This document shows positions 1,739 to 22,168 of a stretch of DNA of 64,000 nucleotides, in pieces. The stretch comes from Vitis vinifera (Eukaryota > Streptophyta > Magnoliopsida > Vitales > Vitaceae): NCBI RefSeq assembly GCF_030704535.1, contig NC_081812.1, positions 23,597,501 to 23,661,500 of the forward strand. The letters run 5' to 3'. Both the position numbers and the translations under genes were made by a program. The first letter of the stretch is position 1; the number at the start of each line of letters is the position of its first letter. Below the pieces are notes generated by a model. The model was not told where the DNA came from and made no database searches. It saw only the letters and a list, made by a program, of their open reading frames with translations.

Positions 1739-2006
1739 ATTTTTATTATTTTTCTATTGTTTTTTAAGAAAATTTATATTTAAATTTGTTCATGAATCGT
1801 TATTCAATTATGAATTTAATATAATAAAAGTAATTTAATTTAGATAAAATAAATCCATAAATTATATTTAATTGTAGGAATAAGAGAAGACAAGATATCA
1901 TATTTAATAAGAAATACATATACTTATAATATGGTTTTTAATGAAATATTATATTTAGTTTGTAAAATAAAATAAATAAAATAAATGAAATATATATTAT
2001 TTCTTA
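1739..2006 (+). repeat. 268-bp direct repeat flanking the viral block, left copy
   Basis: Positions 1739-2006 match 16613-16880 at a constant offset of 14874, with no difference seen by eye. The sequence is AT-rich host-type DNA, not viral. Viral sequence starts at 2007 and host sequence continues leftward from 1738. One copy sits on each side of the 14.6-kb viral insertion. This is what a very large target-site duplication, or repair of a break with widely spaced ends, would leave. Confidence 0.9.
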
Positions 2007-2394
2007 ACTTTATCAATTGATTTTCTCTCATCCTGATCAAACTGATAAATTTGGAAGAAAATTAGCTATTTGTGTTTTAAATGCCTTCATCAATGATTTC
2101 AAATCTGTTGAACTCATCATAGAAAGTAAACCTCCTGAATGGTCGAATGATGGAGGAGTCTACCCTGCTCAGCATCTCATTTTACTCAAAGCCAATCAGA
2201 GAAAACATCAGTTGTTTGGTACAGAGGACCCTTGGCCCTGTACTAAATCCAGTCTCAAAAAACAAATCAGACATTGCAGATCAAGAATAATTGCAAGAGA
2301 CCTTGATTCTGAGATTTATAGTTCTTCTAACTATAATCTCATTACTGAAGATAATATTCAAAAAATCATCTCTGCAAATAACTTTCATGAAGTC
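2007..2394 (+). pseudogene. 3' fragment of component-B polyprotein ORF
   Basis: The reading frame matches the last part of the B polyprotein in the inverted copy (minus strand, about 8775-8390), with one visible residue change (C for W). It starts abruptly at the host junction at 2007 and leaves the coding sequence at 2394. There ATGAAGTC, shared with viral noncoding DNA, joins it to the 3' noncoding region, so the last codons are missing. The function of this C-terminal region is unknown. The fragment has no start codon or promoter of its own. Confidence 0.9.
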
Positions 2395-2416
2395 TGAAGA
2401 AGTGCACAGTTCACAG

Positions 2417-2421
<5 letters not shown>

Positions 2422-2468
<47 letters not shown>
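2422..2468 (+). repeat. 47-bp poly(A) tract in viral noncoding DNA
   Basis: An uninterrupted A run lies between two short viral noncoding motifs (GTGCACAGTT.. and CAGTATATGAAGTC). The inverted copy has two corresponding T tracts (8113-8140 and 8182-8216) separated by about 40 bp. Here only one tract remains and the order of the flanking motifs is changed, which indicates rearrangement by short homologies or slippage. Confidence 0.8.
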
Positions 2469-2469
<1 letters not shown>

Positions 2470-2478
2470 AGTATATGA

Positions 2479-2918
2479 AGTCATCAGCTCTCTGTAATCA
2501 AGGTATATTTTCAATAAACAATATTTTCAGATTCAAATATTTGTGTTATTATGCTTAAATTTCTGCAATAAATTAGACAGTATTAGACATTAAATATTTC
2601 TGTTTTTATGCTTGGAGTTAATTAGACAGATTTAATTACTGCGTGCACGAACTGTTGTATGTCCTGGGTGCAAATGGTATCAGAGTCATTTTCTGCTTGA
2701 GAACCGAGTGGTGTTACGAGTTGGAACAGTGATTAATCGCACATTTAGTCCTGACTTAGTTCGGGTTGAATTTCCTGTGAACGGTTTGGTCAGCCTGTGA
2801 TAAGCGGTGTTTAAGGGCAGAAGGAGCGTAAGTCCCGTGTTGATCCGCTTGTGGTGGTCCCTGTTCAGGAAATTATCTGAATTAATTAAGGATAAAATTG
2901 TGATTATTTTCTGTGACA
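2479..2918 (+). promoter_or_regulatory. Component-B leader with primer-binding site and poly(A) signal, copy 1
   Basis: This noncoding leader is shared with 7337-7636 and 13094-13575 (inverted) and, from the primer-binding site onward, with component A (15300-15543). It holds an AATAAA at 2513-2518 and a tRNA-Met primer-binding site at 2675-2687. In this copy the site has one substitution (GAGTC for GAGCC), so pairing to the tRNA 3' end is slightly weakened. The upstream promoter part found in the inverted copy (TATA box, G-box) is absent here because of the join at 2479-2482. Confidence 0.8.
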
Positions 2919-5900
2919 ATGAGTAATATTTTTAGGAGATTAAGTAGAGGTAGTTCTTCCAAAACACTTGGGTCTAATGATAGTTCTGCATCATCATCTG
3001 CATCATCACTCACTCAAAATATAGTTAATAGTCAAGAAATAAATATTGCTCAAATAGAGAGTCAACTTCATAATTGGTCAATTCCTCACATGAAAATTAA
3101 TACAATATATCAACAAGGAAATTTTGAATTTAATCAAAATTATTCAATAAAAACTGAAGAAAAAACTATATCTCTTAATCAAAATTTAGAAAGTCTTCAA
3201 TTGTTAAGTCAAAATACTATTAATCATCATAGGAAGAAATTCAATTATATTCATATAGGATTAGTTCAAGTTGCTATAAAACCTTTATTTAGGCTAGGAT
3301 TAGATATTCCTGTATTTACATGCCTTAGAGATGCTAGATCTATAAATTTTACTGATTCAATACTTAGCATGATAGATTCAAACCTTGCTAATGGTCCTAT
3401 TTATTTTAATTGTTTTCCAAACTTTTCTATGAACATAAATGATCCTAGTATACTTTCTAGTTTAACTTTAAATATTAAAACTAAAAATATGAATTTTGTA
3501 GAAGAAGCTCAAACTATAGCAATAATTTATAGGATATATTATAAAGTCATGACTACTCAATTAAATCCTAGAGCCATATGTCAATCTGTCAAGGATGAAA
3601 CATTATTATTACAATATAATCCTAATAATACCCAAGCTTTTGTTCCTAAGAAATTAAAATGGAATGAAATTACTCAAGGGAGTCAATGGGAATTAAAAGA
3701 TTTAACTCATCCAAAACCTATTAAACCTTTAACAACTCTTTCAAAAATTATTCAACATACTGATGGTACTATTCAAATAGAATTTTCTCCAGCATCTAGA
3801 TATTCTTTCAATCAAGATTTCGTGTCTTCAAGACCTTCTACTTCAAATGCTAGCTTAAATAGTGTCAATTTTACTCCAAAAATTCCTATTCCTGTTTATC
3901 AACAAAATGAATCTCCTCCTGTGTCTCCTACTCATTCAGATATGTTTCCTAATCAAGTCAACATAATTCATAAGAAAAATTACAAAAAGACTCCTTTTAC
4001 ACCTAATATAGAATGGATAAAATCAGATTATTTTTCTCCTAAAAATGATTCAAAAAGAGTTTATTTTCAAACATTTCCTCCTCAAACTAGAAATGCACTA
4101 AGAAAACAATATGAAAAATATATGAATCAAAAGAAAATTACTATTCCCTTTTTCTATTGGTTTTTCAAACTTAAAAAACAAAGAAAACAAATTATAACTT
4201 TAAGAGATAAAGAAGGTCACCAATTAGCCTTAAAACACTCAGAAAATATTCAAAAAAGAATTTTAACAATAACCTCAGAATTAGGTTCACAACCACCCTT
4301 AAATAATCATCAATTCAATTTTGACAATAATTCAATTTCTGCATCACCCTTTAAAATTCCAAGAACTAAAGATGAACAAAGTCCCATAATTTACAAAGAT
4401 ATTAGACAAATTCAACAACAATTAAATTATACAAATCATTCTCTTCAACATGTGAATCAACAGACAACAAAAATTTCTCAATTTTTGTTTTCTTCTGTCC
4501 CGAGAGAGAGGATAGGAGAAACAACATCAAAATTACAATTTTCTTCAAAAGTTTCTTCAACTTTATCATCATCATCATCTTCGTCATCATCATCTTCTAA
4601 GTGTTCAGATCAACCTTTTATTATTCCTATAAATGCTGCAAAATCAAATATTCAATTAGCCACACCAACAGAAATAATGTTAAAAGAAATACAAATTAGA
4701 TTAGATAAACTCAATATTAATGGTATTAATCAAACTAAGAATCAAATTCAAACCATAACAAAAGGAAAATCAGAAATCAATAAAATAGAAGAACAATTCA
4801 AAATGTCTCCTGATTCAATAGTAAAACCTCCTGCAACAGTCAATGCAATTTCTAATAATTTTGTAAGTAGAAAAAATTATTATTCAAAACCCTCTTTTCC
4901 TGATGTCCAATTAGAAGAAAGAAATTATCAATTAGCTGCTAGTTATGATGGTAGTAGTTTTTATGAATGGAATATAGATGGAATGAGTGAACATCAAATA
5001 ATCAATCTGCTTCATGAAATGATGATGGCTGCAAATGCATATAGAATCAAGACTAGTAATTCTGACTTTCATGCTGCCGGTGCCTTGGTCATAGGATTCA
5101 CTGGTTTGCTTAAAGGATGGTGGGATCATTATTTGAGTCAAAATGATAGAGAATATATATTAAATGCAAAAAAGACAATAATCAAAGAAGAAGGAACATC
5201 AGTCCAAACTTATGAAGAAGATGCTGTCAATACTCTAATATTTGCAATAACAAAACATTTTATAGGAGATCCAGTCTATTTTCAAGAAAGAACTTCTGAA
5301 ATCCTTAACAATCTTAGATGTCCAACACTTCAAGATTTTAAGTGGTATAAGGATATGTTTCTAGTCAAAGTTATGTCAAAACCTGATTGTGGAAATCATT
5401 ATTGGAAAGAAAAATTTATATCAGGATTACCCACCTTATTTGCAGAAAAAGTTAGACAAAGAATAAGAAATATTCATAATGGTAGGATTCCTTATGAGTC
5501 ATTAACTTATGGAGAATTAATTACTTTTGTTAATAATGAAGGTTTAGCTCTTTGTACAGATCTTAAATTAAAGAGTCAAATGAAAAAAGAGAAACAAGAT
5601 AACAGAAAAGAATTAGGAAAATTTTGTTCGTATTACGGTTATGATACATTAGTTGCCCCTTCAAAAAGAAAAAATAAACAAAATAAAATAAAAAGTAAAA
5701 AACCTTCAACAGAATCAAAATTTCAAAAGAAGTTTGTAAAATCTACTCCTAATAAATCAAAACCTCCAAATAAATCAAATTTAAAAAAGAAAACACCTAC
5801 TTGTTATAAATGTGGAAAAGTAGGTCATTATTCAAGAGATTGTCAATTAGAAAATAAAATCAATTCATTAGAAATAAGTGATAAACTCAAAAATTTAATG

Positions 5901-7199
5901 ATAGGATTAATGATTGATAAAGAAAATGATGAATCAAGTGAAAATTATGAATCAGAAGAAGATAATCAAATCCTCATAACTCAAGAAATATCAAGTGAAG
6001 GGTCAAGTCTAGAAGAAGAATCAGATAATAAAAAAGATTGTGATGGTATTTGTGCATGCTCATATAAGTCAATAAATGTGATTTCAAAATATTCAAAGAC
6101 TCATTTTAATATCATTATTAGAAATTATGTTCCCCTCATGAACTCAATATATTTTCAAATTTGGTATGATAAAGACAAAACCATTAGATATTTGTTTTAT
6201 TCTTCAATAAAGATACTAACATTTAAACTTTGTGTACAGATGGAGCAAGAAAGAATTACATCATATAAGTCAATAAATGTGATTTCAAAATATTCAAAGA
6301 CTCATTTTAATATCATTATTAGAAATTATGTTCCCCTCATGAACTCAATATATTTTCAAATTTGGTATGATAAAGACAAAACCATTAGATATTTGTTTTA
6401 TTCTTCAATAAAGATACTAACATTTAAACTTTGTGTACAGATGGAGCAAGAAAGAATTACATTTGGGAAATTTACTCTTCCAGTATTTCCTAAATGTAAT
6501 CTGTCATTTCGGATTCATAAAGATATTGAAGGTTTAGACAGATCACAAAAATGCATTTTAGACAACCTCTGGAATGCAAAAAGTGATATTCAAAAGTTGG
6601 AAGCTTTAAATGCCTTATCTTTCTATTTTAAACAGTAAAATGATAAATTAGAAAGTTTTTCTAACCCTTCAAGTTCTGATATACATTGCACCCCAATGGA
6701 TACAGATCTTGAAAATTTCATTTGCAGGAAAAAAGCAAAAGGATCCAAAGATGCATTTTCAAAAGATTTTCAAAATGAATTTCAAAAAGAACTTTCAAAA
6801 CCAAATGAAGATTCAAAACTTTCCCAGGAAGGCCAAGAATGTCAAATTTCCAGATTTTCATTTTTCAAGTTGAAAAATTTGGACCTTCTTGAAAGTATTA
6901 GACAGATGATATGTGAAAAGGCTAAAGCTACAGGAGAAGCAAAGCAAGAGCATATCATGCAATTTCTTGCTGACTGTAGCACTTTTGGAATTACTATTCA
7001 AGGGATGAGCTTCACTTGGATTTTTTGTTATGACAATACTTATAATAATTGTCCAAAGACCGATCCCTTGTGTAGAGAAATTCCATTAGAAAGGCATGAC
7101 TGTAAGTGTGCTCTTACTTACAGTATATGCAAAGCCAACATTGACTTAGACAGTTATAAACCAATAGTCATTAAATTCAACAATGAGTCAATAGAGCTC
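2919..7199 (+). pseudogene. Component-B polyprotein (movement protein, coat protein, zinc knuckle), copy 1, 3' deleted
   Basis: The frame opens at ATG 2919 and ends at TAA 6636-6638. In the inverted copy this stop is a TTA codon, so it is a nonsense change. The same frame then continues to 7199. Order: Ser-rich N-terminus; 30K-superfamily movement protein (residues about 110-215, with LGLDIPVF and GPIYFNCFPNF); a basic block with RNALRKQYEKYM; a Ser tract; a coat-protein core near residue 680-800 (LKGWWDHYLS); a CCHC knuckle C-x2-C-x4-H-x4-C at about residue 962-975; an acidic stretch; a 67-residue tandem duplication; then an unrecognised Cys-rich tail. No protease, RT or RNase H is encoded. 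At GAGCTC (7194-7199) the frame jumps into leader sequence, deleting the rest of the ORF and the promoter. Confidence 0.9.
6060..6461 (+). repeat. 201-bp in-frame tandem duplication inside component-B ORF, copy 1
   Basis: 6060-6260 is repeated at 6261-6461. The unit is 201 bp, so the reading frame is kept and 67 residues (beginning SYKSINVISKYSKTHF) occur twice in a row. The same duplication is present in the inverted copy at 9552-9953. The two copies therefore inherited it from one template, or one copy derives from the other. Confidence 0.95.
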
Positions 7200-7636
7200 G
7201 GCAAGGGGTTCCAAGAGTGTTGTAAGAGTTAGCTGCAAGAGAGAAAAATATTAGAGAGTTGCAAAAAATATTTTGAGAGTTCAAAAATTCTCTTTTAATT
7301 TTCTTAGAGTCATTCCTCTACTGTCAACAACTTGTAGTCATCAGCTCTCTGTAATCAAGGTATATTTTCAATAAACAATATTTTCAGATTCAAATATTTG
7401 TGTTATTATTTCTGCAATAAATTAGACAGTATTAGACATTAAATATTTCTGTTTTTATGCTTGGAGTTAATTAGACAGATTTAATTACTGCGTGCACGAA
7501 CTGTTGTATGTCCTGGGTGCAAATGGTATCAGAGCCATTTTCTGCTTGAGAACCGAGTGGTGTTACGAGTTGGAACAGTGATTAATCGCACATTTAGTCC
7601 TGACTTAGTTCGGGTTGAATTTCCTGTGAATGGTTT
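7194..7636 (+). promoter_or_regulatory. Component-B leader region downstream of copy 1
   Basis: This starts at the GAGCTC junction and runs through the pregenomic leader: an AATAAA at 7370-7375, then the primer-binding site TGGTATCAGAGCC at 7524-7536. It stops at about 7636, where the sequence inverts. Compared with the inverted copy it lacks eight bases near 7408 (in the region reading TTATTATTTCTGC). No ORF follows it in plus orientation. Confidence 0.8.
7508..7549 (+). other. 13-codon short ORF overlapping the primer-binding site
   Basis: ATG at 7508 starts a 13-codon ORF that ends with TGA at 7547-7549 and spans the primer-binding site (7524-7536). The same short ORF exists in the inverted leader. 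Between its stop and the polyprotein ATG the leader (about 240 nt, seen complete in copy 1 and component A) contains no other ATG. Plant pararetrovirus leaders commonly hold short ORFs that govern ribosome shunting or reinitiation; whether this one is translated is unknown. Confidence 0.4.
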
Positions 7637-7924
7637 AACTCCAAGCATAAAAACAGAAATATTTAATGTCTAATACTGTCTAATTTATTGCAGAAATTTA
7701 AGCATAATAACACAAATATTTGAATCTGAAAATATTGTTTATTGAAAATATACCTTGATTACAGAGAGCTGATGACTACAAGTTGTTGACAGCAGAGGAA
7801 TGACTCTAAGAAAATTAAAAGAGAATTTTTGAACTCTCAAAATATTTTTTTGCAACTCTCTAATATTTTTCTCTCTTGCAGCTAACTCTTACAACACTCT
7901 TGGAACCCCTTGCCGAGCTCTGCT

Positions 7925-8060
7925 CTGGTAGGAAGCCTTTGAGCCCTATTTATAGCAAAGGCTTGAAGGCTTTATGCATTGGATGTCTTCCACGTGTATG
8001 CAGGAGGTAAATTTGCTTTCTTCTTCTTCATTTGGTCACATGGGTAATGAGTCATCTTGC
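7925..8060 (-). promoter_or_regulatory. Probable pregenomic RNA promoter of component B
   Basis: On the minus strand the order is a bZIP-type TGACTCA (plus strand TGAGTCA, 8048-8054), a G-box CACGTG at 7991-7996, and a TATA box CTATAAATAG at 7945-7954. Transcription would start around 7915-7925 and run toward lower coordinates. G-box or as-1-like elements upstream of a TATA are usual in caulimovirid promoters. This is the only copy of the module in the window, because copy 1 and both A fragments have lost the corresponding DNA. Confidence 0.7.
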
Positions 8061-8112
8061 TTTTTACTTTAAAGGACGGATTTTACTATTCACAAAACAC
8101 TATTCACTTTTC

Positions 8113-8145
<33 letters not shown>

Positions 8146-8180
8146 CTGTGCACTGTGCACTTCTTCAGACTTCATATACT

Positions 8181-8216
<36 letters not shown>
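8113..8216 (-). repeat. Two homopolymer T tracts (A on viral sense strand)
   Basis: T runs at 8113-8140 (28) and 8182-8216 (35) are separated by a 41-bp segment holding GTGCACTGTGCAC. They lie between the stop codon of the B ORF (8280) and the promoter. They could be slippage products or traces of polyadenylated RNA copied into DNA. The ORFs predicted through them are artefacts. Confidence 0.7.
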
Positions 8217-8219
<3 letters not shown>

Positions 8220-8279
8220 GGATAATCATAAGAGAGCTACTTTACAGATGTACAAAAGATTCTTGATTCTTGATATCTC

Positions 8280-11200
8280 TTAGTTGAGCATTTCTAAGAG
8301 ATATTTCTCAAAAGTTTTTCTGGCTTCTTCTTCAAGGACATATTCTTTTTTATACTTATCAACAAGATAAGTAAATTGAGTTTGAAACAAAAGAGGGACT
8401 TCATGAAAGTTATTTGCAGAGATGATTTTTTGAATATTATCTTCAGTAATGAGATTATAGTTAGAAGAACTATAAATCTCAGAATCAAGGTCTCTTGCAA
8501 TTATTCTTGATCTCCAATGTCTGATTTGTTTTTTGAGACTGGATTTAGTACAGGGCCAAGGGTCCTCTGTACCAAACAACTGATGTTTTCTCTGATTGGC
8601 TTTGAGTAAAATGAGATGCTGAGCAGGGTAGACTCCTCCATCATTCGACCATTCAGGAGGTTTACTTTCTATGATGAGTTCAACAGATTTGAAATCATTG
8701 ATGAAGGCATTTAAAACACAAATAGCTAATTTTCTTCCAAATTTATCAGTTTGATCAGGATGAGAGAAAATCAATTGATAAAGAACTCCATAGTCCATGA
8801 GAAGGGTTGGAGTTAGCTCTATTGACTCATTGTTGAATTTAATGACTATTGGTTTATAACTGTCTAAGTTAATGTTGGCTTTGCATATACTGTAAGTAAG
8901 AGCACACTTACAGTCATGCCTTTCTAATGGAATTTCTCTACACAAGGGATCGGTCTTTGGACAATTATTATAAGTATTGTCATAACAAGAAATCCAAGTG
9001 AAGCTCATCCCTTGAATAGTAATTCCAAAAGTGCTACAGTCAGCAAGAAATTGCATGATATGCTCTTGCTTTGCTTCTCCTGTAGCTTTAGCCTTTTCAC
9101 ATATCATCTGTCTAATACTTTCAAGAAGGTCCAAATTTTTCAACTTGAAAAATGAAAATCTGGAAATTTGACATTCTTGGCCTTCCTGGGAAAGTTTTGA
9201 ATCTTCATTTGGTTTTGAAAGTTCTTTTTGAAATTCATTTTGAAAATCTTTTGAAAATGCATCTTTGGATCCTTTTGCTTTTTTCCTGCAAATGAAATTT
9301 TCAAGATCTGTATCCATTGGGGTGCAATGTATATCAGAACTTGAAGGGTTAGAAAAACTTTCTAATTTATCATTTAACTGTTTAAAATAGAAAGATAAGG
9401 CATTTAAAGCTTCCAACTTTTGAATATCACTTTTTGCATTCCAGAGGTTGTCTAAAATGCATTTTTGTGATCTGTCTAAACCTTCAATATCTTTATGAAT
9501 CCGAAATGACAGATTACATTTAGGAAATATTGGAAGAGTAAATTTCCCAAATGTAATTCTTTCTTGCTCCATCTGTACACAAAGTTTAAATGTTAGTATC
9601 TTTATTGAAGAATAAAACAAATATCTAATGGTTTTGTCTTTATCATACCAAATTTGAAAATATATTGAGTTCATGAGGGGAACATAATTTCTAATAATGA
9701 TATTAAAATGAGTCTTTGAATATTTTGAAATCACATTTATTGACTTATATGATGTAATTCTTTCTTGCTCCATCTGTACACAAAGTTTAAATGTTAGTAT
9801 CTTTATTGAAGAATAAAACAAATATCTAATGGTTTTGTCTTTATCATACCAAATTTGAAAATATATTGAGTTCATGAGGGGAACATAATTTCTAATAATG
9901 ATATTAAAATGAGTCTTTGAATATTTTGAAATCACATTTATTGACTTATATGAGCATGCACAAATACCATCACAATCTTTTTGATTATCTGATTCTTCTT
10001 CTAGACTTGACCCTTCACTTGATATTTCTTGAGTTATGAGGATTTGATTATCTTCTTCTGATTCATAATTTTCACTTGATTCATCATTTTCTTTATCAAT
10101 CATTAATCCTATCATTAAATTTTTGAGTTTATCACTTATTTCTAATGAATTGATTTTATTTTCTAATTGACAATCTCTTGAATAATGACCTACTTTTCCA
10201 CATTTATAACAAGTAGGTGTTTTCTTTTTTAAATTTGATTTATTTGGAGGTTTTGATTTATTAGGAGTAGATTTTACAAACTTCTTTTGAAATTTTGATT
10301 CTGTTGAAGGTTTTTTACTTTTTATTTTATTTTGTTTATTTTTTCTTTTTGAAGGGGCAACTAATGTATCATAACCGTAATACGAACAAAATTTTCCTAA
10401 TTCTTTTCTGTTATCTTGTTTTCTTTTTTCATTTGACTCTTTAATTTAAGATCTGTACAAAGAGCTAAACCTTCATTATTAACAAAAGTAATTAATTCTC
10501 CATAAGTTAATGACTCATAAGGAATCCTACCATTATGAATATTTCTTATTCTTTGTCTAACTTTTTCTGCAAATAAGGTGGGTAATCCTGATATAAATTT
10601 TTCTTTCCAATAATGATTTCCACAATCAGGTCTTGACATAACTTTGACTAGAAACATATCCTTATACCACTTAAAATCTTGAAGTGTTGGACATCTAAGA
10701 TTGTTAAGGATTTCAGAAGTTCTTTCTTGAAAATAGACTGGATCTCCTATAAAATGTTTTGTTATTGCAAATATTAGAGTATTGACAGCATCTTCTTCAT
10801 AAGTTTGGACTGATGTTCCTTCTTCTTTGATTATTGTCTTTTTTGCATTTAATATATATTCTCTATCATTTTGACTCAAATAATGATCCCACCATCCTTT
10901 AAGCAAACCAGTGAATCCTATGACCAAGGCACCGGCAGCATGAAAGTCAGAATTACTAGTCTTGATTCTATATGCATTTGCAGCCATCATCATTTCATGA
11001 AGCAGATTGATTATTTGATGTTCACTCATTCCATCTATATTCCATTCATAAAAACTACTACCATCATAACTAGCAGCTAATTGATAATTTCTTTCTTCTA
11101 ATTGGACATCAGGAAAAGAGGGTTTTGAATAATAATTTTTTCTACTTACAAAATTATTAGAAATTGCATTGACTGTTGCAGGAGGTTTTACTATTGAATC

Positions 11201-13093
11201 AGGAGACATTTTGAATTGTTCTTCTATTTTATTGATTTCTGATTTTCCTTTTGTTATGGTTTGAATTTGATTCTTAGTTTGATTAATACCATTAATATTG
11301 AGTTTATCTAATCTAATTTGTATTTCTTTTAACATTATTTCTGTTGGTGTGGCTAATTGAATATTTGATTTTGCAGCATTTATAGGAATAATAAAAGGTT
11401 GATCTGAACACTTAGAAGATGATGATGACGAAGATGATGATGATGATAAAGTTGAAGAAACTTTTGAAGAAAATTGTAATTTTGATGTTGTTTCTCCTAT
11501 CCTCTCTCTCGGGACAGAAGAAAACAAAAATTGAGAAATTTTTGTTGTCTGTTGATTCACATGTTGAAGAGAATGATTTGTATAATTTAATTGTTGTTGA
11601 ATTTGTCTAATGTCTTTGTAAATTATGGGACTTTGTTCATCTTTAGTTCTTGGAATTTTAAAGGGTGATGCAGAAATTGAATTATTGTCAAAATTGAATT
11701 GATGATTATTTAAGGGTGGTTGTGAACCTAATTCTGAGGTTATTGTTAAAATTCTTTTTTGAATATTTTCTGAGTGTTTTAAGGCTAATTGGTGTCCTTC
11801 TTTATCTCTTAAAGTTATAATTTGTTTTCTTTGTTTTTTAAGTTTGAAAAACCAATAGAAAAAGGGAATAGTAATTTTCTTTTGATTCATATATTTTTCA
11901 TATTGTTTTCTTAGTGCATTTCTAGTTTGAGGAGGAAATGTTTGAAAATAAACTCTTTTTGAATCATTTTTAGGAGAAAAATAATCTGATTTTATCCATT
12001 CTATATTAGGAGTAAAAGGAGTCTTTTTGTAATTTTTCTTATGAATTATGTTGACTTGATTAGGAAACATATCTGAATGAGTAGGAGACACAGGAGGAGA
12101 TTCATTTTGTTGATAAACAGGAATAGGAATTTTTGGAGTAAAATTGACACTATTTAAGCTAGCATTTGAAGTAGAAGGTCTTGAAGACACGAAATCTTGA
12201 TTGAAAGAATATCTAGATGCTGGAGAAAATTCTATTTGAATAGTACCATCAGTATGTTGAATAATTTTTGAAGGAGTTGTTAAAGGTTTAATAGGTTTTG
12301 GATGAGTTAAATCTTTTAATTCCCATTGACTCCCTTGAGTAATTTCATTCCATTTTAATTTCTTAGGAACAAAAGCTTGGGTATTATTAGGATTATATTG
12401 TAATAATAATGTTTCATCCTTGACAGATTGACATATGGCTCTAGGATTTAATTGAGTAGTCATGACTTTATAATATATCCTATAAATTATTGCTATAGTT
12501 TGAGCTTTTTCTACAAAATTCATATTTTTAGTTTTAATATTTAAAGTTAAACTAGAAAGTATACTAGGATCATTTATGTTCATAGAAAAGTTTGGAAAAC
12601 AATTAAAATAAATAGGACCATTAGCAAGGTTTGAATCTATCATGCTAAGTATTGAATCAGTAAAATTTATAGATCTAGCATCTCTAAGGCATGTAAATAC
12701 AGGAATATCTAATCCTAGCCTAAATAAAGGTTTTATAGCAACTTGAACTAATCCTATATGAATATAATTGAATTTCTTCCTATGATGATTAATAGTATTT
12801 TGACTTAACAATTGAAGACTTTCTAAATTTTGATTAAGAGATATAGTTTTTTCTTCAGTTTTTATTGAATAATTTTGATTAAATTCAAAATTTCCTTGTT
12901 GATATATTGTATTAATTTTCATGTGAGGAATTGACCAATTATGAAGTTGACTCTCTATTTGAGCAATATTTATTTCTTGACTATTAACTATATTTTGAGT
13001 GAGTGATGATGCAGATGATGATGCAGAACTATCATTAGACCCAAGTGTTTTGGAAGAACTACCTCTACTTAATCTCCTAAAAATATTACTCAT
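8280..13093 (-). pseudogene. Component-B polyprotein, copy 2 (inverted, nearly intact)
   Basis: ATG at 13093, stop TAA at 8282-8280, about 1600 codons. Compared with copy 1 there is one 1-bp deletion at about 10420-10430, in an A/G run after the coat-protein core, which shifts the frame and ends it at 10397. The original frame resumes and runs open to 8280. Content is as in copy 1: movement protein, coat protein, CCHC knuckle (about 10165-10210), duplicated 67-residue unit, and the full C-terminal tail that copy 1 lacks. A cluster of Cys and His residues lies around 8905-8990. Protease, RT and RNase H are absent. Only a handful of amino-acid differences separate it from copy 1, for example K for E and R for K. 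Confidence 0.9.
9552..9953 (-). repeat. 201-bp in-frame tandem duplication inside component-B ORF, copy 2
   Basis: Units are 9552-9752 and 9753-9953, the counterpart of 6060-6461. The frame is maintained through both units. Confidence 0.95.
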
Positions 13094-13575
13094 TGTCACA
13101 GAAAATAATCACAATTTTATCCTTAATTAATTCAGATAATTTCCTGAACAGGGACCACCACAAGCGGATCAACACGGGACTTACGCTCCTTCTGCCCTTA
13201 AACACCGCTTATCACAGGCTGACCAAACCGTTCACAGGAAATTCAACCCGAACTAAGTCAGGACTAAATGTGCGATTAATCACTGTTCCAACTCGTAACA
13301 CCACTCGGTTCTCAAGCAGAAAATGGCTCTGATACCATTTGCACCCAGGACATACAACAGTTCGTGCACGCAGTAATTAAATCTGTCTAATTAACTCCAA
13401 GCATAAAAACAGAAATATTTAATGTCTAATACTGTCTAATTTATTGCAGAAATTTAAGCATAATAACACAAATATTTGAATCTGAAAATATTGTTTATTG
13501 AAAATATACCTTGATTACAGAGAGCTGATGACTACAAGTTGTTGACAGCAGAGGAATGACTCTAAGAAAATTAAA
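13094..13575 (-). promoter_or_regulatory. Component-B leader of the inverted copy, with primer-binding site
   Basis: This leader precedes ATG 13093 and contains the primer-binding site at 13325-13337 (minus) and AATAAA at 13494-13499 (minus). Positions 13391-13575 repeat 7635-7819 at an offset of 5756 bp. The inverted copy therefore carries a short terminal redundancy, and the B genome unit is about 5.76 kb. At about 13575 the sequence switches, within an A-rich stretch, to component A in plus orientation. Confidence 0.85.
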
Positions 13576-13867
13576 ACAAAAACAAAAACATCAACAGAAA
13601 CATCAAAAACAACAAAGATAGAAAATCCAAAAGAAATCAAAAAGATAAATGTAATATCTTCAAAAGTAGATAAGCAAATATTTTTTGATGTTGTAGACAA
13701 AATTCAAGATGAAGAAATACAAAGAACTTATTTACAAAATTTAAAAAATTTAATTCTCACTGAAAATCCAAATAAAACTCAAGACATCAAACCCAATCAA
13801 TATTCAATGGATGAAATTTATAATAGATTCAAAAAGACTCAAAGGCCAATAACCATTAAAGACTTGG
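13576..13867 (+). repeat. About 292-bp direct duplication between the two A fragments, left copy
   Basis: 13576-13867 matches 16321-16612 at an offset of 2745 with no visible difference. The two component-A fragments overlap over this stretch but lie in permuted order, with the middle of the genome first and the beginning second. They were therefore joined from separate or circular molecules. Confidence 0.85.
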
Positions 13868-15299
13868 AAGAAGAAATAAAAGAAATAAAAAGTCAAATAA
13901 ATCAATTAAAATTAGATAATGAAAAAATAAAATTAGAAAATGATCAAATAAAACAAGAGAATGAACAAATTAGAAACGTAATACAATATAAACAAGATTT
14001 AGATGAAACTTCTGAAAACCAAGAACCAGGAATAATAATACCTAATAAAATAACTCCTATAGAATCATTTATAAATACAATATCAAAAATAGATTTTCAA
14101 AGATGGTATACAAATGTAAAACTCATAGTTGAAGATTTTGAAATAGAAATAGTAGCATTAATAGACTCAGGAGCTGATATGAATTGTATTCAAGAAGGAA
14201 TAATTCCTACTAAATATTATGAAAAAACAGGACAAGAACTTTTTGCTGCTAATAAAGGAAAATTAGAAATAGAATATAAACTTCAAAATGTTCATATATG
14301 TCAAGATAATTATTGTTTTAGAACTCAATTTATTTTAGTACAAAATATGTCTGAACCTTTAATATTAGGAACCCCTTTTATTACCTTACTCTATCCTTTT
14401 CAAGTAAATGATGAAGGTGTCAAAACTACAATATTAGGAAATACCATATTTTTTCCCTTTATATATCCATTAACTAAAAAAGAAATGCATCAAGTTCAAA
14501 GTGATTCAATAAACAAGAATATAAATTTAATTCAAAGAAAGAAAGCTCATATAAATTATCTATCAAAAGAAATTCAATATAAAAAGGTAGATGAACAACT
14601 CTTAGAAGATAAAGTTCAAAAGAAAATTAAAGAGAATCAAGATCTTTTTCAAAATGAAATTTGTTCTGATCTTCCTAATGCTTTTTGGTCAAGAAAGAAA
14701 CATGAGATAAGTTTGCCTTACATTCAAAATTTTGATGAGTCCAAAATTCCTACTAAGGCTAGGCCGATTCAAATGAATGAAAAACTTTTAGAATATTGTA
14801 AACAAGAAATTGATTCATTATTAAAAAAGAAATTAATTAGACCCTCAAAATCTCCTTGGAGTTGTGCCGCTTTTTATGTTCAAAATGCTGCTGAGATAGA
14901 AAGAGGAGCACCTAGATTAGTCATTAATTATAAACCTTTAAATAAAGTATTACAATGGATAAGATACCCTATTCCTAATAAGCAAGATTTACTTAAAAGA
15001 CTTCATAGTTCTGTCATTTATTCAAAATTTGATATGAAATCAGGATTCTGGCAGGTTCAAATTAGAGAAGAAGATAGATACAAAACTGCTTTTACTGTCC
15101 CTTTTGGTCATTATGAATGGAATGTCATGCCTTTTGGTCTCAAAAATGCCCCTTCTGAATTTCAAAATATTATGAATGATATTTTCAATCCTCATTTTCA
15201 ATTCATAATTGTGTATATTGATGATGTTTTAGTATTTTCTGATTCATTAGAAAAACATTTTATTCATTTGAAAAAGTTTTTTAATGTCATTAAAGCAAA
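13576..15299 (+). pseudogene. Component-A polyprotein fragment: coiled coil, aspartic protease, reverse transcriptase
   Basis: An open frame enters without its own start and runs through a Lys/Thr-rich stretch and a heptad-like coiled coil (13867-13990, EEEIKEIKSQINQLK type). It then reaches an aspartic protease with LIDSGADMNC at about 14158-14187 and a reverse transcriptase. RT blocks seen are a primer-grip-type segment near 14930, KFDMKSGFWQV near 15025, FGLKNAPSEFQ near 15135, and YIDDVLVFSDS at about 15213-15243. The fragment is cut inside the RT thumb at about 15295-15302 and joined to a leader, so the RNase H domain is missing. No movement protein or CCHC knuckle is seen on this component. 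Confidence 0.92.
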
Positions 15300-15543
15300 T
15301 GGTATCAGAGCCATTTTCTGCTTGAGAACCGAGTGGTGTTACGAGTTGGAACAGTGATTAATCGCACATTTAGTCCTGACTTAGTTCGGGTTGAATTTCC
15401 TGTGAACGGTTTGGTCAGCCTGTGATAAGCGGTGTTTAAGGGCAGAAGGAGCGTAAGTCCCGTGTTGATCCGCTTGTGGTGGTCCCTGTTCAGGAAATTA
15501 TCTGAATTGATTAAGGATAAAATTGTGATTATTTTCTGTGACA
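15300..15543 (+). promoter_or_regulatory. Component-A leader with primer-binding site
   Basis: The primer-binding site TGGTATCAGAGCC is at 15300-15312. From there to the ATG at 15544 the leader is almost base-for-base identical to the component-B leader (2675-2918). I noticed one difference downstream of the site (GAATTGATT for GAATTAATT) plus the altered base in the copy-1 site. Identity continues into the first codons and then fades, so the shared block acts as a common region of two otherwise different molecules. Confidence 0.88.
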
Positions 15544-16612
15544 ATGAGTAATATTATTAGGGAATTAAGTAGAAATAGTTCTTCCAGATCTCTTAGGTCC
15601 CATGATAGTTCTGCATCTGCATTAAATAATTCTGCATATAATTTAGAAAGTTCTTCATATAAGATAATGAGATTTTCAAATGCATCTACTGCATCATCAT
15701 CTGCATCATTACCTGCTGCATCATTAGCTGCATCATCATGGTGTCATCACATAAAATTTAATAATTCAAAATTTAATGAAGAATTAAATCAAATAGAAAA
15801 TCAACTAAAAAATAGTTCAAACTTTGTTCCTGAAATTTCTCTTTTTGAAGAAGAGTCTGAGTCAAAAATTTTCTATCATGATAAACCTCCTTTAAACATA
15901 AATATCATTAGGAAAAGATACATTAAAAGAAATCCTTTTGTTCCTGAAGTAGAATTAATTAAAGCAAATTATTTTTCTCCTGAAAATACTGCAAAAAGAA
16001 ATTATTTTCAACAACTTCCTCCTCAAGTTAGAAATGCATTAAGAAAACAATATGAAAAATATATGCAACAAGTTAAAATGACTATTCCTTTTTTCCTTTG
16101 GTTTTTCAAATATAGGAAACCCCTTAAAAGAATTGCAACATTAACTTCAAGAAAAGCAATAGAAAATTCTCCACATAATAAAAAATTGGTAGAACAACAA
16201 AAACCAAATCCAGAAGAGTCAAGTAAAGAATCAAAAGAAGAATCAAGTGAAACAAAATTTAATCAAATTTTGTTTTCTTCTGCCCCGGGAGAGGTGGAGG
16301 AAACAGAAACAAAAACAAAAACAAAAACAAAAACATCAACAGAAACATCAAAAACAACAAAGATAGAAAATCCAAAAGAAATCAAAAAGATAAATGTAAT
16401 ATCTTCAAAAGTAGATAAGCAAATATTTTTTGATGTTGTAGACAAAATTCAAGATGAAGAAATACAAAGAACTTATTTACAAAATTTAAAAAATTTAATT
16501 CTCACTGAAAATCCAAATAAAACTCAAGACATCAAACCCAATCAATATTCAATGGATGAAATTTATAATAGATTCAAAAAGACTCAAAGGCCAATAACCA
16601 TTAAAGACTTGG
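15544..16612 (+). pseudogene. Component-A polyprotein, N-terminal fragment
   Basis: The ATG at 15544 opens a frame with an N-terminus related to component B (MSNIIRELSRNSSS versus MSNIFRRLSRGSSS) and an Ala/Ser-rich segment. A block related to B follows (FSPEN..., RNALRKQYEKYMQQ, IPFFLWFF), then a Lys/Thr-rich repeat and the start of the coiled-coil region. Compared with B, the movement-protein region is missing between the N-terminus and the RNALRKQYEKYM block, and no coat-protein core is present. The fragment stops at 16612, where host DNA resumes, with a one-base overlap (A, 16613). Confidence 0.88.
16321..16612 (+). repeat. About 292-bp direct duplication between the two A fragments, right copy
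   Basis: Counterpart of 13576-13867; its right end is the right boundary of the viral block. Confidence 0.85.
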
Positions 16613-16880
16613 ATTTTTATTATTTTTCTATTGTTTTTTAAGAAAATTTATATTTAAATTTGTTCATGAATCGTTATTCAATTATGAATTTAATATAATA
16701 AAAGTAATTTAATTTAGATAAAATAAATCCATAAATTATATTTAATTGTAGGAATAAGAGAAGACAAGATATCATATTTAATAAGAAATACATATACTTA
16801 TAATATGGTTTTTAATGAAATATTATATTTAGTTTGTAAAATAAAATAAATAAAATAAATGAAATATATATTATTTCTTA
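16613..16880 (+). repeat. 268-bp direct repeat flanking the viral block, right copy
   Basis: Matches 1739-2006. Host DNA continues at 16881 with sequence unrelated to what follows 2006, so the pre-insertion site would have carried one copy. Confidence 0.9.
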
Positions 16881-19800
16881 ATGTTTAAAATAAAAATATA
16901 TTTATCTGGTTAAATTGATTTGAAAACAATTTTCTATTTTTAAAAATAGAGAGTTGCTTTTAAATTTTTTTAACACTGTTTGGTCATTGTTATTAGAAAC
17001 TATTTTTAAAAATATAAATGAAATAAATAACAATTTTTAAAGAATAAGTAAAAGTTGGTTTTTACTATTTTTAAAAATAAAAGAAAAACATTAAAAATTT
17101 ATTATAAAAAAACAAATAAAATTGAACATTATATTATTCTCTTTCACTATTTACAATCTAATATCTATACTAAAATAATTTAAATTACAAATAATTTTTT
17201 GAATTTCTTTTAACTCATCTCAAATTTTTTCATTAACCAAATAAATTTAAAATGAAATTGTATTTTATATATAAATTTTGTTAATTTTTTAATAACATTA
17301 GTAATACTGAGAATAGTTCAAAACTCAAAAACTGATTTACTTAATACTAAAAAGTCATAAAACTAGATAACATTAGTATGCAATAAACCAATATTTATAT
17401 TAAATGTCTTAGCGTATTTTTACAAATTTTTTATTAAACAAATAAACTTCAACTTAATATGCTAAATTCATTAATAAGTATAATAACATTTAAAAATAAT
17501 TTAAAACCCAAATAATAAACCTATTAATATAAAAAATTTATGGATAAAAACTGGTCTCGATCAATAATGAGTCTAATAATTTTTAAAAATAAATTAAAAC
17601 TCAAATAATGATCCACTTAATACCATAATTTTATGGACAAAAATTGGACAAAAATATTTTTCTTTTACATAAAATCATTATTTTCTAGTTTTTTTTAACT
17701 AGGCAATTAAACTCCAAGATAAAACAAAAATTAATTTATTTGATTCATTGACAAGTTTAGTCATTTTTAAAAATAATTCGAAACTTAGTGAATAACTCAT
17801 TAACTCTATGAATTTATGGATAAAAATTGATTTATAATGACTCAATTATTATTATTATTTTTGTGTATAATTATATTTTCATAAAATTTTTCACTATAAA
17901 AATCAACTTGAAATCAAGTGACACTTTGTATTAATTCTATTAATGAGTTTATTTATTTTTTTAAATAATTAAAAACTTAAATTTTTTTATAGATAGGGTC
18001 ATTAAAAAAATAATAAATCAAAACTGATATATTATGAGTCATGACAACATTATTATTTTGTTCACACAAATATATGTTTAGGTAAATAAATTATAAAATA
18101 AGTAAGACATAATTAATAATTTTAATTATTTAATAGTTTAAAAAATTTATAAATAATTTTGAATTCAAAAAAATGATTTAAGTAATTATAGATTAAATTA
18201 AAATATTTTACAATATTATGTTCATAATTGAGTACTAAATGTGTATATGAAATGAAAACTTGAATCATTTATATATTAAAAAAATTACATGTTATTCATT
18301 ATTTATTTTAAATAAAATATTATTATAAATTACTATTATTCATTTTTAACAAAAAAAAACTGCATTATGTTTCTAAAATATACTAAGATAATATTTTTTT
18401 TTTTAATTTATGATTTTATTATAATTATATTATTCATGTTTTACTATAATTTTTTATTTTAATTTGTAATTACAAAATTATTTTATTTTTTAATAAGACT
18501 TGAATTAAATTGAATTTATAATTTGTAAATTGAATTTGCAATGTTTTTACAATGCCAAAAAAAAACAACTTATCTAAACAGATTTCTTGTTTTTTTTTTT
18601 TTTTTTTTAAACCCGTTTTTAAAAATAACTTGTTAAATACATTTGTAATACTTATTTAAAAAATGAAAATAATTTTGAAATTTGAAATGGCTCAAAAACT
18701 TGTACCTTCAGGCTTTTGATTGTTCATTTTTTATGTAAAAACTCACGCAAAAGAAAATAAGGGAGATAATTTGAATCACTTTTGATAAATAAAATTTAAA
18801 TATTAATTAAAATAAATAACTTAATACTTAATAACATCTACACATCAATAAAAAATAAATATCCAAATACCTAAGTTACATTCAACCCGATCCACATTTT
18901 CATTACCTTTCATGTTTATCTTTTAATATATATATATATTTTTTTCTATTTAATGATTAAAGTGTTGAAGAATATAGCATTCGCCTTAATTCATAAGAAA
19001 AGGAAAAAGAAAAGTCAACTACGACCGAGTCATACCATTTTAGGACACGTGGCATACAAGTGATACAACTATCCTTATGCCCACAAACGTGGACTAGCAG
19101 ATGTTACGGTTCAATGGTCGCAGTTATTTGAAACGTACATAAATAACCCTAACTGTATTCAGATGTTACAGGTTAAACCTTGAAAGAAAACGCGAAATTT
19201 CAGGTTATAGAGATGTTTTTCCTATTTATGATTTTTTAATCGATAGAAGGTTGGAAATTTGAACCATGTGTCGTTTTTTCCATTAAAATATTAAAAATAT
19301 TGATCATATTTTTAAATCCTATGATTTTGTTCAAGGATTTTAATATGGTATTAAATATAATTATCCCACACCTCTCCCGTGGGTGCTATTATGACTTAAA
19401 ATGATATATAAAAACTATAAAATTAACTGCAAAACTTTTAATCATCCTATGAAAAAAATTATCATTATCCTATGGAATGTATAGATTCATAAAAATCGAA
19501 CATTTTTTAGAAAATTCAACTAAACTCGTTTCTCATTATAGAGAAAGCTACTTGAAACTTCTAAAATGTTTTACATTATACAATTAAATTCCAGTTAAAA
19601 AATAGAGAATAGAATTGCATCATGATAGGTTATTAGAGACTCTAATGAAACTATAAAAAATATTACTAGTAGGCATATAGGCAATGCTTTGATAAATATT
19701 ATGAAATGTATGACTTTAATAAATGATATATTATCCATAAAGAGCGATGAGTTTTTAAGCTTAGAGACTGAAAGTTGCTAAAAAATAATAATAAATTGTT

Positions 19801-20540: not shown

Positions 20541-20679
20541 CACGTGGGAGGGTGGATCCGTGGCTCTGTCTATAAATATAATACATACCCGTGAGGTCCG
20601 CGATCCGCGTTAAGGAAATGGCAGTTTGGTAATATTCTAGAGGTCGAGCACCAAACTTTTAGACTTCCATTCTATATAA
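20541..20679 (+). promoter_or_regulatory. Promoter region of the penta-EF-hand gene
   Basis: A G-box CACGTG lies at 20541-20546. TATA-type motifs follow at about 20569-20579 (CTATAAATATA) and 20673-20679 (TATATAA). The second is 60 bp before the ATG, so a start near 20700 is most likely. A G-box suggests bZIP/bHLH control, for example by stress or ABA; this is inferred only. Confidence 0.5.
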
Positions 20680-20738
20680 CTCTCCTTGAGGCTTCAGCTT
20701 TCTCCCGATTAGAAACCCTCGATTCGTCTTTTAGGAAA

Positions 20739-22168
20739 ATGTCTGGATATCCACACGCGCCTCCAGGTCACGGCTACGGCTACGGTGCGCCGCCGCCGGC
20801 GCAGCCTTACTCTGCAACTCCATATGGTGCGCCGGCGCCACAAGGCTACCAACCGTACGCCCCCGTGGCCACACCCTATGGTGCTCCATCGGCGCCGTAC
20901 GCAGCCCCAGGAGAGAAACCCCCTAAGGAGAACAAGCCCCACGGAGGCTCCAGCCACCAACCTCCGCCATCGTCCATGGGAGGGTATCCGCCTTCGGCGC
21001 CGGGGTTCGGAAGTCCCTTCGCGTTGCTTGTGCCGTCGGCTTTTCCTCCGGGGACGGACCCCAACGTGGTGGCATGCTTCCAGATGGCGGACCAGGACGG
21101 TAGTGGGTTCATCGACGATAAGGAGTTGCAGGGGGCTTTGTCTTCTTACAATCAGAGGTTCAGCCTCCGAACTGTTCATCTTCTCATGTATCTCTTCACC
21201 AACAGTAACGCCCGAAAGATCGGTGAGTTTTTTGGGTTTCGTTCACTGTTTCGGATTTTCAATCTTTGAGCATCGTGAAAATGAGAGGTCTATAGCTTAG
21301 TTTAAGGATTTTGTTGGACAACTGAAAAAATATCTTGCAAACAGCATTAAAATCACCACAATACCCCCTCCAAGTGCCCAAATATTACATGCACAAAGGC
21401 AGGTGTAGTAGGACAGGTGTTGTTGGAATTTATTCCACGCGTTTGTAGATAAAGTAGCTTTACTGAAAGGTTGGTGTGGGCCATGGCCGTCTTTGAAGTC
21501 TGAACTAATATATATATGGTTTTTTGAATGAATGGATGGAAAAACAGGCCCCAAGGAATTCACAGCTGTGTTTTACAGTCTTCAGAATTGGAGGGTAAGT
21601 AAATAAGTGTTTGAATTTAGGAATTATTTATAGAGAGTATGGATGATGAATTTGAATGGGTTGCAAAATTGTCAGGCGATATTTGAGAATTTTGACAGGG
21701 ACCGTAGTGGGAAAATCGAAGCTGGGGAGCTGAGAGAGGCACTGATGAGCCTAGGATTTGCTGTTTCGCCAGTGGTTTTGGATTTGCTGCTTTCCAAGTT
21801 TGATAAGAGTGGAGGCAGAAACAAGGCTATTGAATATGATAATTTTATTGAGTAGGTGGTTTCAACTTTTTGTATATTGAATTTTTCTTAATTTTAATTT
21901 TGATTTTGATTACTTATCATCTTTTTGTTCCATGCAGGTGCTGTCTCACGGTAAAGGTAAGCAAAGTGGGTGTGTGTGTGTAATAGCAATAGCAATAGCG
22001 CAGTGCAGCAGTGGGTTTTGGGTTTGGGTTTGGAATTAAACAATGTGTTGTTATTTGTGACAGGGGCTGACAGAGAAATTCAAGGAGAAGGATAGCTCGT
22101 TCTCTGGTTCCGCAACCTTCAGTTATGAGAATTTTATGCTCACCGTCTTGCCATTTCTTATTGCTTAG
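20739..22168 (+). CDS. Penta-EF-hand calcium-binding protein (CML49/50-like)
   Basis: Five exons by splice sites and frame: 20739-21222, 21548-21594, 21676-21851, 21938-21956, 22064-22168, giving 276 residues. The N-terminal 100 residues are rich in Gly, Pro, Tyr and Ala (PYGAPAPQGYQPYAP type). Penta-EF-hand repeats follow, including a clear loop DQDGSGFIDDKE at residues 118-129 and DRDRSGKIEAGE at about 184-195; later hands are degenerate. This architecture is that of plant relatives of ALG-2/sorcin (Arabidopsis CML49 and CML50 class). Such proteins bind calcium and associate with membranes or partners through the Pro/Gly-rich tail. All introns are GT-AG. The GC-rich first exon contrasts with AT-rich surroundings. 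Family certain, exact orthologue not. Confidence 0.9.

What the first reader, a model, noticed from the sequence alone, without database searches (positions are those of the whole stretch)
2675..16612. Two complementary pararetrovirus components sharing one leader: a candidate bipartite genome
Seen: B units (2919-7199; 8280-13093 minus) encode movement protein, coat protein and zinc knuckle, but after the knuckle go into an unknown tail with no protease or RT. A fragments (13576-15299; 15544-16612) encode protease and RT, with no movement-protein core or knuckle between their N-terminus and the protease. Both start with the same primer-binding site and about 240 nt of nearly identical leader, then diverge within the first codons. 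Known: I recall that bipartite genomes have been proposed for some endogenous florendoviruses. Inference: A and B replicated together, with the common leader kept identical because it carries cis signals for priming, translation and packaging, like the common region of bipartite begomoviruses.
Basis: partly seen in the sequence, partly recalled or inferred. Interest (0 to 1): 0.88.

Follow-up and report, generated by a model that had tools for sequence, protein, structure and literature searches.

The report
Two-part plant pararetrovirus fossil
A plant chromosome carries the remains of a virus that seems to have split its genes over two DNA molecules sharing one control region, a layout already reported for a few fossil plant viruses but here apparently divided more cleanly.

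Summary
Window 2008-16612 is one compound insertion of two endogenous caulimovirid components, flanked by a perfect 269-bp direct repeat. B units encode MP, coat, zinc knuckle and an unknown tail; A pieces encode protease and RT. Their 244-nt leaders match at 243/244, the next 74 coding nt at 63/74.

Full A units elsewhere carry N-terminus-DUF7588-protease-RT-RNaseH plus ORF2. Of 41 leader matches (best 40 of 198 candidates scored), 19 precede A, 20 B, 2 are unassigned. Leaders do not sort by component (A-B 3.02%, A-A 3.18%, B-B 2.97%), and divergence steps up at the start codon. Polymerase-less B shows purifying selection (MP 0.08, CP 0.11, tail3 0.16). No monopartite unit was seen apart from one evident B-A deletion fusion.

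Best reading: a bipartite florendovirus-like pararetrovirus whose components exchanged a common leader by recombination. Bipartite florendoviruses were published in 2014, so the kind is known. This differs from the published grapevine description: no protease in B, no MP in A, no detectable homology between B tail and A ORF2. Sequences of the published viruses could not be compared.

The parts
1739..2007 (.). left copy of a perfect 269-bp direct repeat of AT-rich flanking DNA (target-duplication-like)
   Evidence: identical to 16613-16881, 269/269; abuts viral sequence
2008..2394 (+). 3' tail fragment of component B
   Evidence: 387 nt, 99.7% to 8397-8783 on the minus strand
2395..2674 (+). 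rearranged, shortened intergenic region of B1, without the TATA-bearing stretch; includes R/U5-like sequence 2476-2674
   Evidence: short shared words at internal joins; repeats with 8108-8216 and 13536; no match to the promoter piece here
2675..2918 (+). leader of B1, starting at TGGTATCAGAG (initiator tRNA-Met binding site; the tRNA match is recalled)
2919..7199 (+). B1 polyprotein frame: MP, DUF7588, DUF7746/coat, CCHC knuckle, unknown tail; one premature stop
7199..7634 (+). fragment: start of the R-like region, U5, primer-binding site (7524) and part of leader; its 5' end lies about 33 nt beyond the TATA box of the inverted copy
7635..13576 (-). B2, a more-than-unit-length inverted copy of B with 186-nt terminal redundancy (7635-7820 = 13391-13576; unit 5756 bp)
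7922..8100 (-). promoter-like part of B's intergenic region, TATAAATA starting at 7954 (minus strand)
8280..13093 (-). B2 polyprotein frame, one frameshift
13094..13337 (-). leader of B2
13577..15299 (+). A fragment 1: linker, aspartic protease, RT (cut within RT)
   Evidence: RVP and RVT_1; best PDB match 8r0s 'Enzymatic polyprotein', 170 bits against 122 for the next chain, 4ol8
15300..15543 (+). leader of A
   Evidence: 243/244 to B2's leader; folds with z -3.27
15544..16612 (+). A fragment 2: A-type N-terminus, DUF7588, linker; 302 nt overlap with fragment 1 at 99.3%
16613..16881 (.). right copy of the 269-bp direct repeat
6060..6461 (+). perfect 201-nt tandem duplication in the B tail (also 9551-9953 in B2)
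   Evidence: the B units of the fetched long loci show one tail1 match, not two

Best explanation
This is a compound germ-line capture of an extinct or dormant pararetrovirus with two genome components. Component A (leader-to-leader about 5.0-5.6 kb) made protease, reverse transcriptase, RNase H and the ORF2 protein. Component B (about 5.5-6.0 kb) made movement protein, coat protein with zinc knuckle, and a tail of unknown function. Each had an intergenic region, tRNA-Met primer site and 244-nt structured leader. A's enzymes must have copied B's RNA and presumably cleaved B's polyprotein in trans; B's coat and movement proteins served A. The leader belonged to one shared pool because the co-replicating components recombined there (template switching or recombination between circles). 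At this locus B and A DNAs were joined into one 14.6-kb chain that filled a chromosome break whose repair left a 269-bp duplication. Shown: the two unit types, their complementarity, the pooled leader, co-location, selection on several B pieces. Inferred: trans-complementation, separate circles, recombination as the homogenising process, break repair.
For: Complementary domains. 19 A, 20 B, 2 unassigned among 41 leaders. No component signal in the 39 assigned leaders: A-B 3.02% (360 pairs), A-A 3.18% (163), B-B 2.97% (182), label permutation p 0.88; same-locus A-B 1.27% (20 pairs), pairing permutation 42 of 5040. The four commonest leader haplotypes occur on both components; 9 A-B pairs have identical leaders. 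In A-B comparisons divergence rises from 1.2-4.6% per leader bin to 8.5, 14.5 and 22.1% from the start codon on, against 1.4-5.3% within components in those last bins. Purifying selection on B pieces: MP 0.08 (26 pairs), CP 0.11 (7), ZK 0.21 (3), tail3 0.16 (8), tail1 0.34 (17), DUF7746 0.28 (4); on A: linker 0.24 (5), AP 0.42 (7). 11 of 35 A-pol loci have a B coat hit within 10 kb; random placement gives 0.08 on average, at most 2, within 20 kb. Same-component joins A-A and B-B exist, so each component could exist alone as a circle or terminally redundant molecule.
Against: Only insertions are seen; no episomal form. Searches scored the best 40 of 198, 473 and 430 candidates, so more divergent units, a monopartite parent included, could be missed. 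Divergence of the shared DUF7588 between A and B shows little constraint (0.86-1.08; 0.67 within A). RT, RH, ORF2, tail2 and DUF7588b had no pair with 5% divergence, so selection on them was not measured. Pairs of copies are not independent and several pieces rest on few pairs. Nearest leaders of B at other loci lean slightly to B (7 B, 5 A, 8 tied of 20; for A 2 A, 4 B, 13 tied of 19). A and B could be helper-dependent defectives rather than an obligate pair.
Confidence: 0.82

Rival explanations
1. A and B are defective deletion derivatives of one monopartite virus that helped both; the pair was never obligate.
For: A and B share the N-terminus and DUF7588, so both descend from one longer frame. 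The review PMC10377300 reports a potential non-segmented parent for one published bipartite virus (passage). Searches were capped at 40 scored candidates.
Against: None of 25 leader contexts and none of 15 older A-pol upstream stretches shows a monopartite unit; L061, where MP, coat and RT lie on one strand, is a B unit with its whole tail fused to A. The A-type N-terminus persists at 11 of 15 A copies whose polymerase is 85-95% identical to the window's. B pieces have diverged to dS 0.41-0.51 (MP, CP, knuckle, tail3) under purifying selection, long for a defective.
Confidence: 0.13
2. A and B were one roughly 11-kb circular genome with two leaders, not two molecules.
For: Head-to-tail A-B and B-A joins at near unit spacing at C4, C5, C10, C13, C14 and C15 (4970-5956 bp); A-B and B-A joins together are about as common as same-component joins (3+5 against 3+4).
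Against: A-A joins at C4 and C14 and B-B joins at C5, C9 and C11; B2 is a terminally redundant B monomer. 11 kb exceeds the 7.1-9.8 kbp that the ICTV profile abstract PMC7660458 gives for the family (search listing).
Confidence: 0.08
3. The leader is alike in A and B only because it is functionally constrained, without exchange between components.
For: It folds well beyond shuffles (z -3.27) and holds the primer site.
Against: The leader does vary (about 3% between loci) and the commoner variants are shared by A and B in the same combinations; constraint alone would not keep variants in step across components.
Confidence: 0.12
4. The 269-bp flanking repeat and the inverted B copies are assembly or segmental-duplication artefacts.
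For: B1 and B2 are 99.7% identical and inverted, and the flanks are 100% identical; the flank could not be searched in the genome.
Against: The junctions read differ from one another; A and B units recur at many loci with other joins.
Confidence: 0.1

Closest known systems
Bipartite florendoviruses VvinBV and VvinDV of Vitis vinifera (Geering et al. 2014, PMC4241990, passages and section 7)
   Same: Two components sharing a nearly identical intergenic region, MP and coat on B, RT on A with an ORF2, tRNA-Met site, compound insertions, components of 5.5-6.9 kb (here about 5.0-6.0).
   Different: Published B also carries the protease and ends in an extension homologous to A's ORF2, and MP (>87% nt) was used to pair A with B. 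Here B has no protease, its tail shows no detectable homology to A's ORF2, and A has no MP. Sequences could not be compared; it may still be one of these viruses.
Oryza sativa B virus and Sorghum bicolor virus (same paper)
   Same: Bipartite; A and B in compound loci (stated for Vitis and Oryza); ORF2 homologues of A and B more divergent there.
   Different: Described as having the same overall structures as the Vitis components, protease on B included.
Common region of bipartite begomoviruses (recalled)
   Same: A shared non-coding region kept alike between two components while the genes differ.
   Different: Rolling-circle ssDNA virus with an origin; here a transcribed leader behind a primer site in a reverse-transcribing virus.
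Petunia vein clearing virus (Petuvirus)
   Same: One polyprotein with the domains that A and B divide between them (inferred ancestor).
   Different: One component; no second ORF like florendovirus ORF2 (PMC4241990, passage).

Membership tests
Caulimoviridae | pararetroviral RT with aspartic protease and RNase H, no integrase | tested here: met
   RVP, RVT_1, RT_RNaseH in A of L013, no integrase family listed; the RT's best PDB match is 8r0s 'Enzymatic polyprotein', 170 bits, against 122 for 4ol8; that 8r0s is the cauliflower mosaic virus enzyme and 4ol8 the Ty3 enzyme is recalled
Caulimoviridae | 30K movement protein and caulimovirid coat domain | tested here: met
   PF01107 2e-20, PF22909 4e-14 in B
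Florendovirus | second ORF of 45-58 kDa downstream of RT-RNase H without known homologues | tested here: met
   L013 4384-5688: 428 aa from the first Met, 49.5 kDa, no Pfam or PDB match; homology to published ORF2 not tested
Florendovirus | tRNA-Met primer-binding site as start of the unit | tested here: met
   TGGTATCAGAG at 2675, 7524, 13337 (-), 15300; that this word is the tRNA-Met site is recalled
Florendovirus | position in the florendovirus clade of the AP-RT-RH1 tree | not testable with these tools
   no reference florendovirus sequences held; protein search switched off
Bipartite florendovirus as described for Vitis | component B carries MP, CP and AP | tested here: not met
   MP and CP yes; no RVP in B and A's protease piece finds no match inside a B unit of the 20 long loci or window at E 1e-4
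Bipartite florendovirus as described for Vitis | B's C-terminal extension homologous to A's ORF2 | tested here: inconclusive
   BLASTP best E 0.96, hhalign probability 0.35%, E 0.17, the same 24-25 residues in both; profiles of 3 and 2 near-identical rows have little power
Bipartite florendovirus as described for Vitis | intergenic region more than 90% identical between A and B | tested here: inconclusive
   leader part met: mean A-B distance 3.02% between loci. The 130 nt upstream of the primer site align poorly: A-B 8-32%, A-A 7-26%, B-B 10-41% per bin, so A-B is no worse than within components but the 90% level is not reached there
Bipartite virus (general) | both components needed for infection | not testable with these tools
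   needs a live system

The most novel reading that the evidence does not exclude
A reverse-transcribing virus with a fully partitioned two-component genome: all enzymes on A, all structural and movement functions on B. It was held together over long virus evolution by a recombining common leader that stops at the start codon, and was often captured as A-B heterodimers; it is distinct from the published Vitis viruses.
Probability: 0.35. Interest if true: 0.72.

Novelty: new variant of a known kind. Interest (0 to 1): 0.52.

Why it matters
The review I read says there are many multipartite viral genomes but none among Ortervirales apart from these putative florendoviruses (PMC10377300 passage). 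The published case, as far as I read it, rests on domain complementarity, intergenic and MP similarity, and compound loci. The tests here add population evidence: leader variants shared across components with a step at the start codon, and purifying selection on a component without polymerase. They turn a structural guess into something that can be tested in any genome with such fossils.

Tried and rejected
Third component: two B leaders (C5:25055946, C9:20496790) match B for only about 170 nt; L015 shows transposon-like and other frames further on, so that one is read as a truncated B; the C9 copy was read for 1.35 kb only. Monopartite candidate: L061 (C11) has partial MP, coat and A polymerase on one strand, but with the whole B tail between coat and protease. 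C17:2524353 has A genes followed by knuckle and B tail on one strand, a fusion without MP or coat core. Structure of the B tail: single-sequence model at pLDDT 34.8, not searched further. NCBIfam and PDB gave nothing for the tail (only the knuckle matched a PDB chain); Pfam gave only DUF2306 below its cut-off (17.5 bits against 31.6). IMG/VR: no pattern match for A, two pattern matches without a confirmed relative for B. Obligate heterodimer: kept as a rival only, because A-A and B-B joins exist.

Results against the reading: selection on DUF7588 is weak; upstream of the primer site the copies are too divergent and gappy to add support; the 90% intergenic identity of the published viruses is met for the leader only. 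Rows dropped: 2 unassigned leaders before the leader statistics; gapped matches, matches under 90% length and identical copies before dN/dS. Of 20 A-pol hits that I judged to have no listed leader nearby, upstream DNA of 15 was read and C11:5833319 later as L061; C1:9519604, C11:17773004, C15:15240387 and C7:24835312 were not read.
Full report
What is in the window. Between 2008 and 16612 lies one chain of viral pieces: a B tail fragment and a shortened intergenic region, B1, a leader fragment, an inverted B2 with 186 nt terminal redundancy (unit 5756 bp), and two A fragments. The chain is bounded by two identical 269-bp copies of AT-rich flanking DNA, 1739-2007 and 16613-16881; BLAST of the first 20 kb against the whole window finds no third copy. 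That is what a single insertion with a long target duplication would leave, so A and B probably entered together; the flank could not be searched in the genome. The internal joins I inspected mostly show short shared words; at the two host joins I saw none longer than a base or two. B1 and B2 differ at 13 bases and one gap over 4723, so the event looks recent; I give no date because I hold no rate from a call.

Domains. B carries MP (PF01107, 2e-20), DUF7588, DUF7746, the Caulimovirus coat domain (4e-14) and a CCHC knuckle, then a tail with no family match above its cut-off. A fragment 1 carries protease and RT; its RT matches 8r0s, 'Enzymatic polyprotein' (cauliflower mosaic virus, recalled), with 170 bits, against 122 for 4ol8 (Ty3, recalled). 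A fragment 2 has the A-type N-terminus and DUF7588 only.

Leader. Primer site to start codon is exactly 244 nt in B1, B2 and A2; B2-A2 243/244, then 63/74 in the next coding bases (Fisher 5.8e-7). One of 200 shuffles folds as well as the A leader (z -3.27); long structured leaders are usual in caulimovirids (recalled).

The host genome. The window lies in a 495.6-Mb assembly of 21 contigs. Size, contig number and the LINE frames at 51796-55017 suggest grapevine; this is my inference from memory. The leader query scored 40 of 198 candidates and gave 41 matches. Of the 38 outside the window I fetched 9.9 kb for 20 and 1.35 kb for 17; the last lies inside already fetched DNA. All 41 were found again in the fetched DNA: 19 A, 20 B, 2 unassigned in a C4 fragment. 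Complete A units, for example in L013, read N-terminus-DUF7588-protease-RT-RNaseH (1090-aa frame), then an overlapping ORF2 (428 aa from the first Met, 49.5 kDa), then an intergenic region and the next leader. Among 25 leaders in the 20 long loci plus the window, none is followed by MP or coat together with protease or RT before the next leader or a change of strand. Several of the 25 contexts are too truncated to be informative, and one (C17:2524353) has A genes followed by knuckle and B tail.

Common leader, separate genes. Among the 39 assigned leaders, mean distance across loci is 3.18% within A (163 pairs), 2.97% within B (182) and 3.02% between A and B (360); shuffling the component labels gives as large a between-within difference in 88% of 1000 cases. 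No listed variable column is fixed between components. The four commonest of 11 five-site haplotypes are split 4A/5B, 6A/3B, 3A/3B and 1A/4B, a fifth 2A/1B; the other six, with one or two copies each, are on one component. Nine A-B pairs have identical leaders. Nearest leaders at other loci are tied or of the other component for 17 of 19 A and 13 of 20 B. At the 7 of 21 loci holding both, A and B leaders resemble each other more than leaders re-paired across loci (42 of 5040 pairings as good). In 30-nt steps, A-B distance is like within-component distance up to the start codon and then rises to 8.5, 14.5 and 22.1%, against 1.4-5.3% within components. Only the best-scoring leaders were sampled, so deeper divergence is not covered.

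Co-location and joins. 40 A-pol and 40 B-coat hits (of 473 and 430 candidates) fall into 35 and 32 loci; 11 A loci have B within 10 kb, against 0.08 expected at random within 20 kb. Both kinds of head-to-tail joins occur: B to A 5, A to B 3, B to B 4, A to A 3, with 10 of 25 not assignable. Of these, one B-B (C11:15207693) and the window's A-A are rearranged, the window's B-B has a shortened intergenic region, and the C5 A-B joins look like one duplicated unit. Further same-component joins: A-A in L052 and B-B at C9. So A and B joined freely and each could exist alone.

Selection. Summed over pairs with at least 5% divergence, dN/dS is 0.08 for MP (26 pairs), 0.11 CP (7), 0.21 knuckle (3), 0.34 tail1 (17), 0.16 tail3 (8) and 0.28 DUF7746 (4) in B; 0.42 protease (7), 0.24 linker (5) and 0.67 DUF7588 (95) in A. 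Gapped matches and stop codons were left out and identical copies collapsed; DUF7588b, tail2, RT, RH and ORF2 had no such pair. A component without polymerase that keeps MP, coat and tail3 under constraint through dS of 0.41-0.51 implies replication with a polymerase supplied in trans. Between A and B, DUF7588 itself shows 0.86-1.08 over 75 codons.

Older copies. For 15 A polymerases at 85-95% identity I read 2.3 kb upstream: 11 have A-type DUF7588 on the same strand, 4 are rearranged or unreadable, and none has coat or knuckle on the polymerase's strand. Four further such hits were not read, and a fifth, L061, is the B-A fusion. The split is therefore older than this insertion.

Against what is known. 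Geering et al. 2014 (PMC4241990; I read passages and sections 5, 7 and 9) describe bipartite florendoviruses in Vitis, Oryza and Sorghum with the same logic, compound insertions included. The review PMC10377300 (passages) adds sugar beet and a possible monopartite parent for VvinBV. I read passages of PMC9719215, PMC5766536 and PMC13308828; the last does not use the word bipartite. My paper searches were made; no listed title or abstract start describes a protease-less B, but no search asked for that in words. Supplements could not be read, so identity with VvinBV or VvinDV is open. The differences (no protease in B, no MP in A, B tail not detectably like ORF2) rest on the main-text description.

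Verdict. The finding is real and its interpretation is largely right; the kind is known, the partition looks different, and the pooled leader is the strongest new evidence.

Noticed in passing
window 6060-6461 and 9551-9953: Perfect 201-nt tandem duplication in the B tail, in both B copies of this locus and in none of the B units of the 20 long loci (one tail1 match each): a possible marker of this B strain.
   Followed up: partly
window 20595-21269: Exon-like frame with a Gly/Pro/Tyr-rich N-terminus and an EF-hand motif, resembling plant penta-EF-hand proteins (recall only).
   Followed up: no
window 51796-55017: Two frames of a non-LTR retrotransposon (endonuclease, RT); similar to grapevine LINEs by memory.
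   Followed up: no
L061 3587-6653: B unit with complete tail fused to A's linker-protease-RT, without a detected leader between them.
   Followed up: yes
L023 (C17): A unit fused to the knuckle-tail part of B on one strand.
   Followed up: partly
L015 and L035: Two B fragments at different loci match B for only about 170 nt after the leader; shared breakpoint or coincidence.
   Followed up: no
window 7199: The leader fragment begins about 33 nt beyond the TATA box of the inverted copy, near the expected RNA start, joined to the B tail at a shared AGAGCT: perhaps a misdirected strong-stop transfer during reverse transcription.
   Followed up: no
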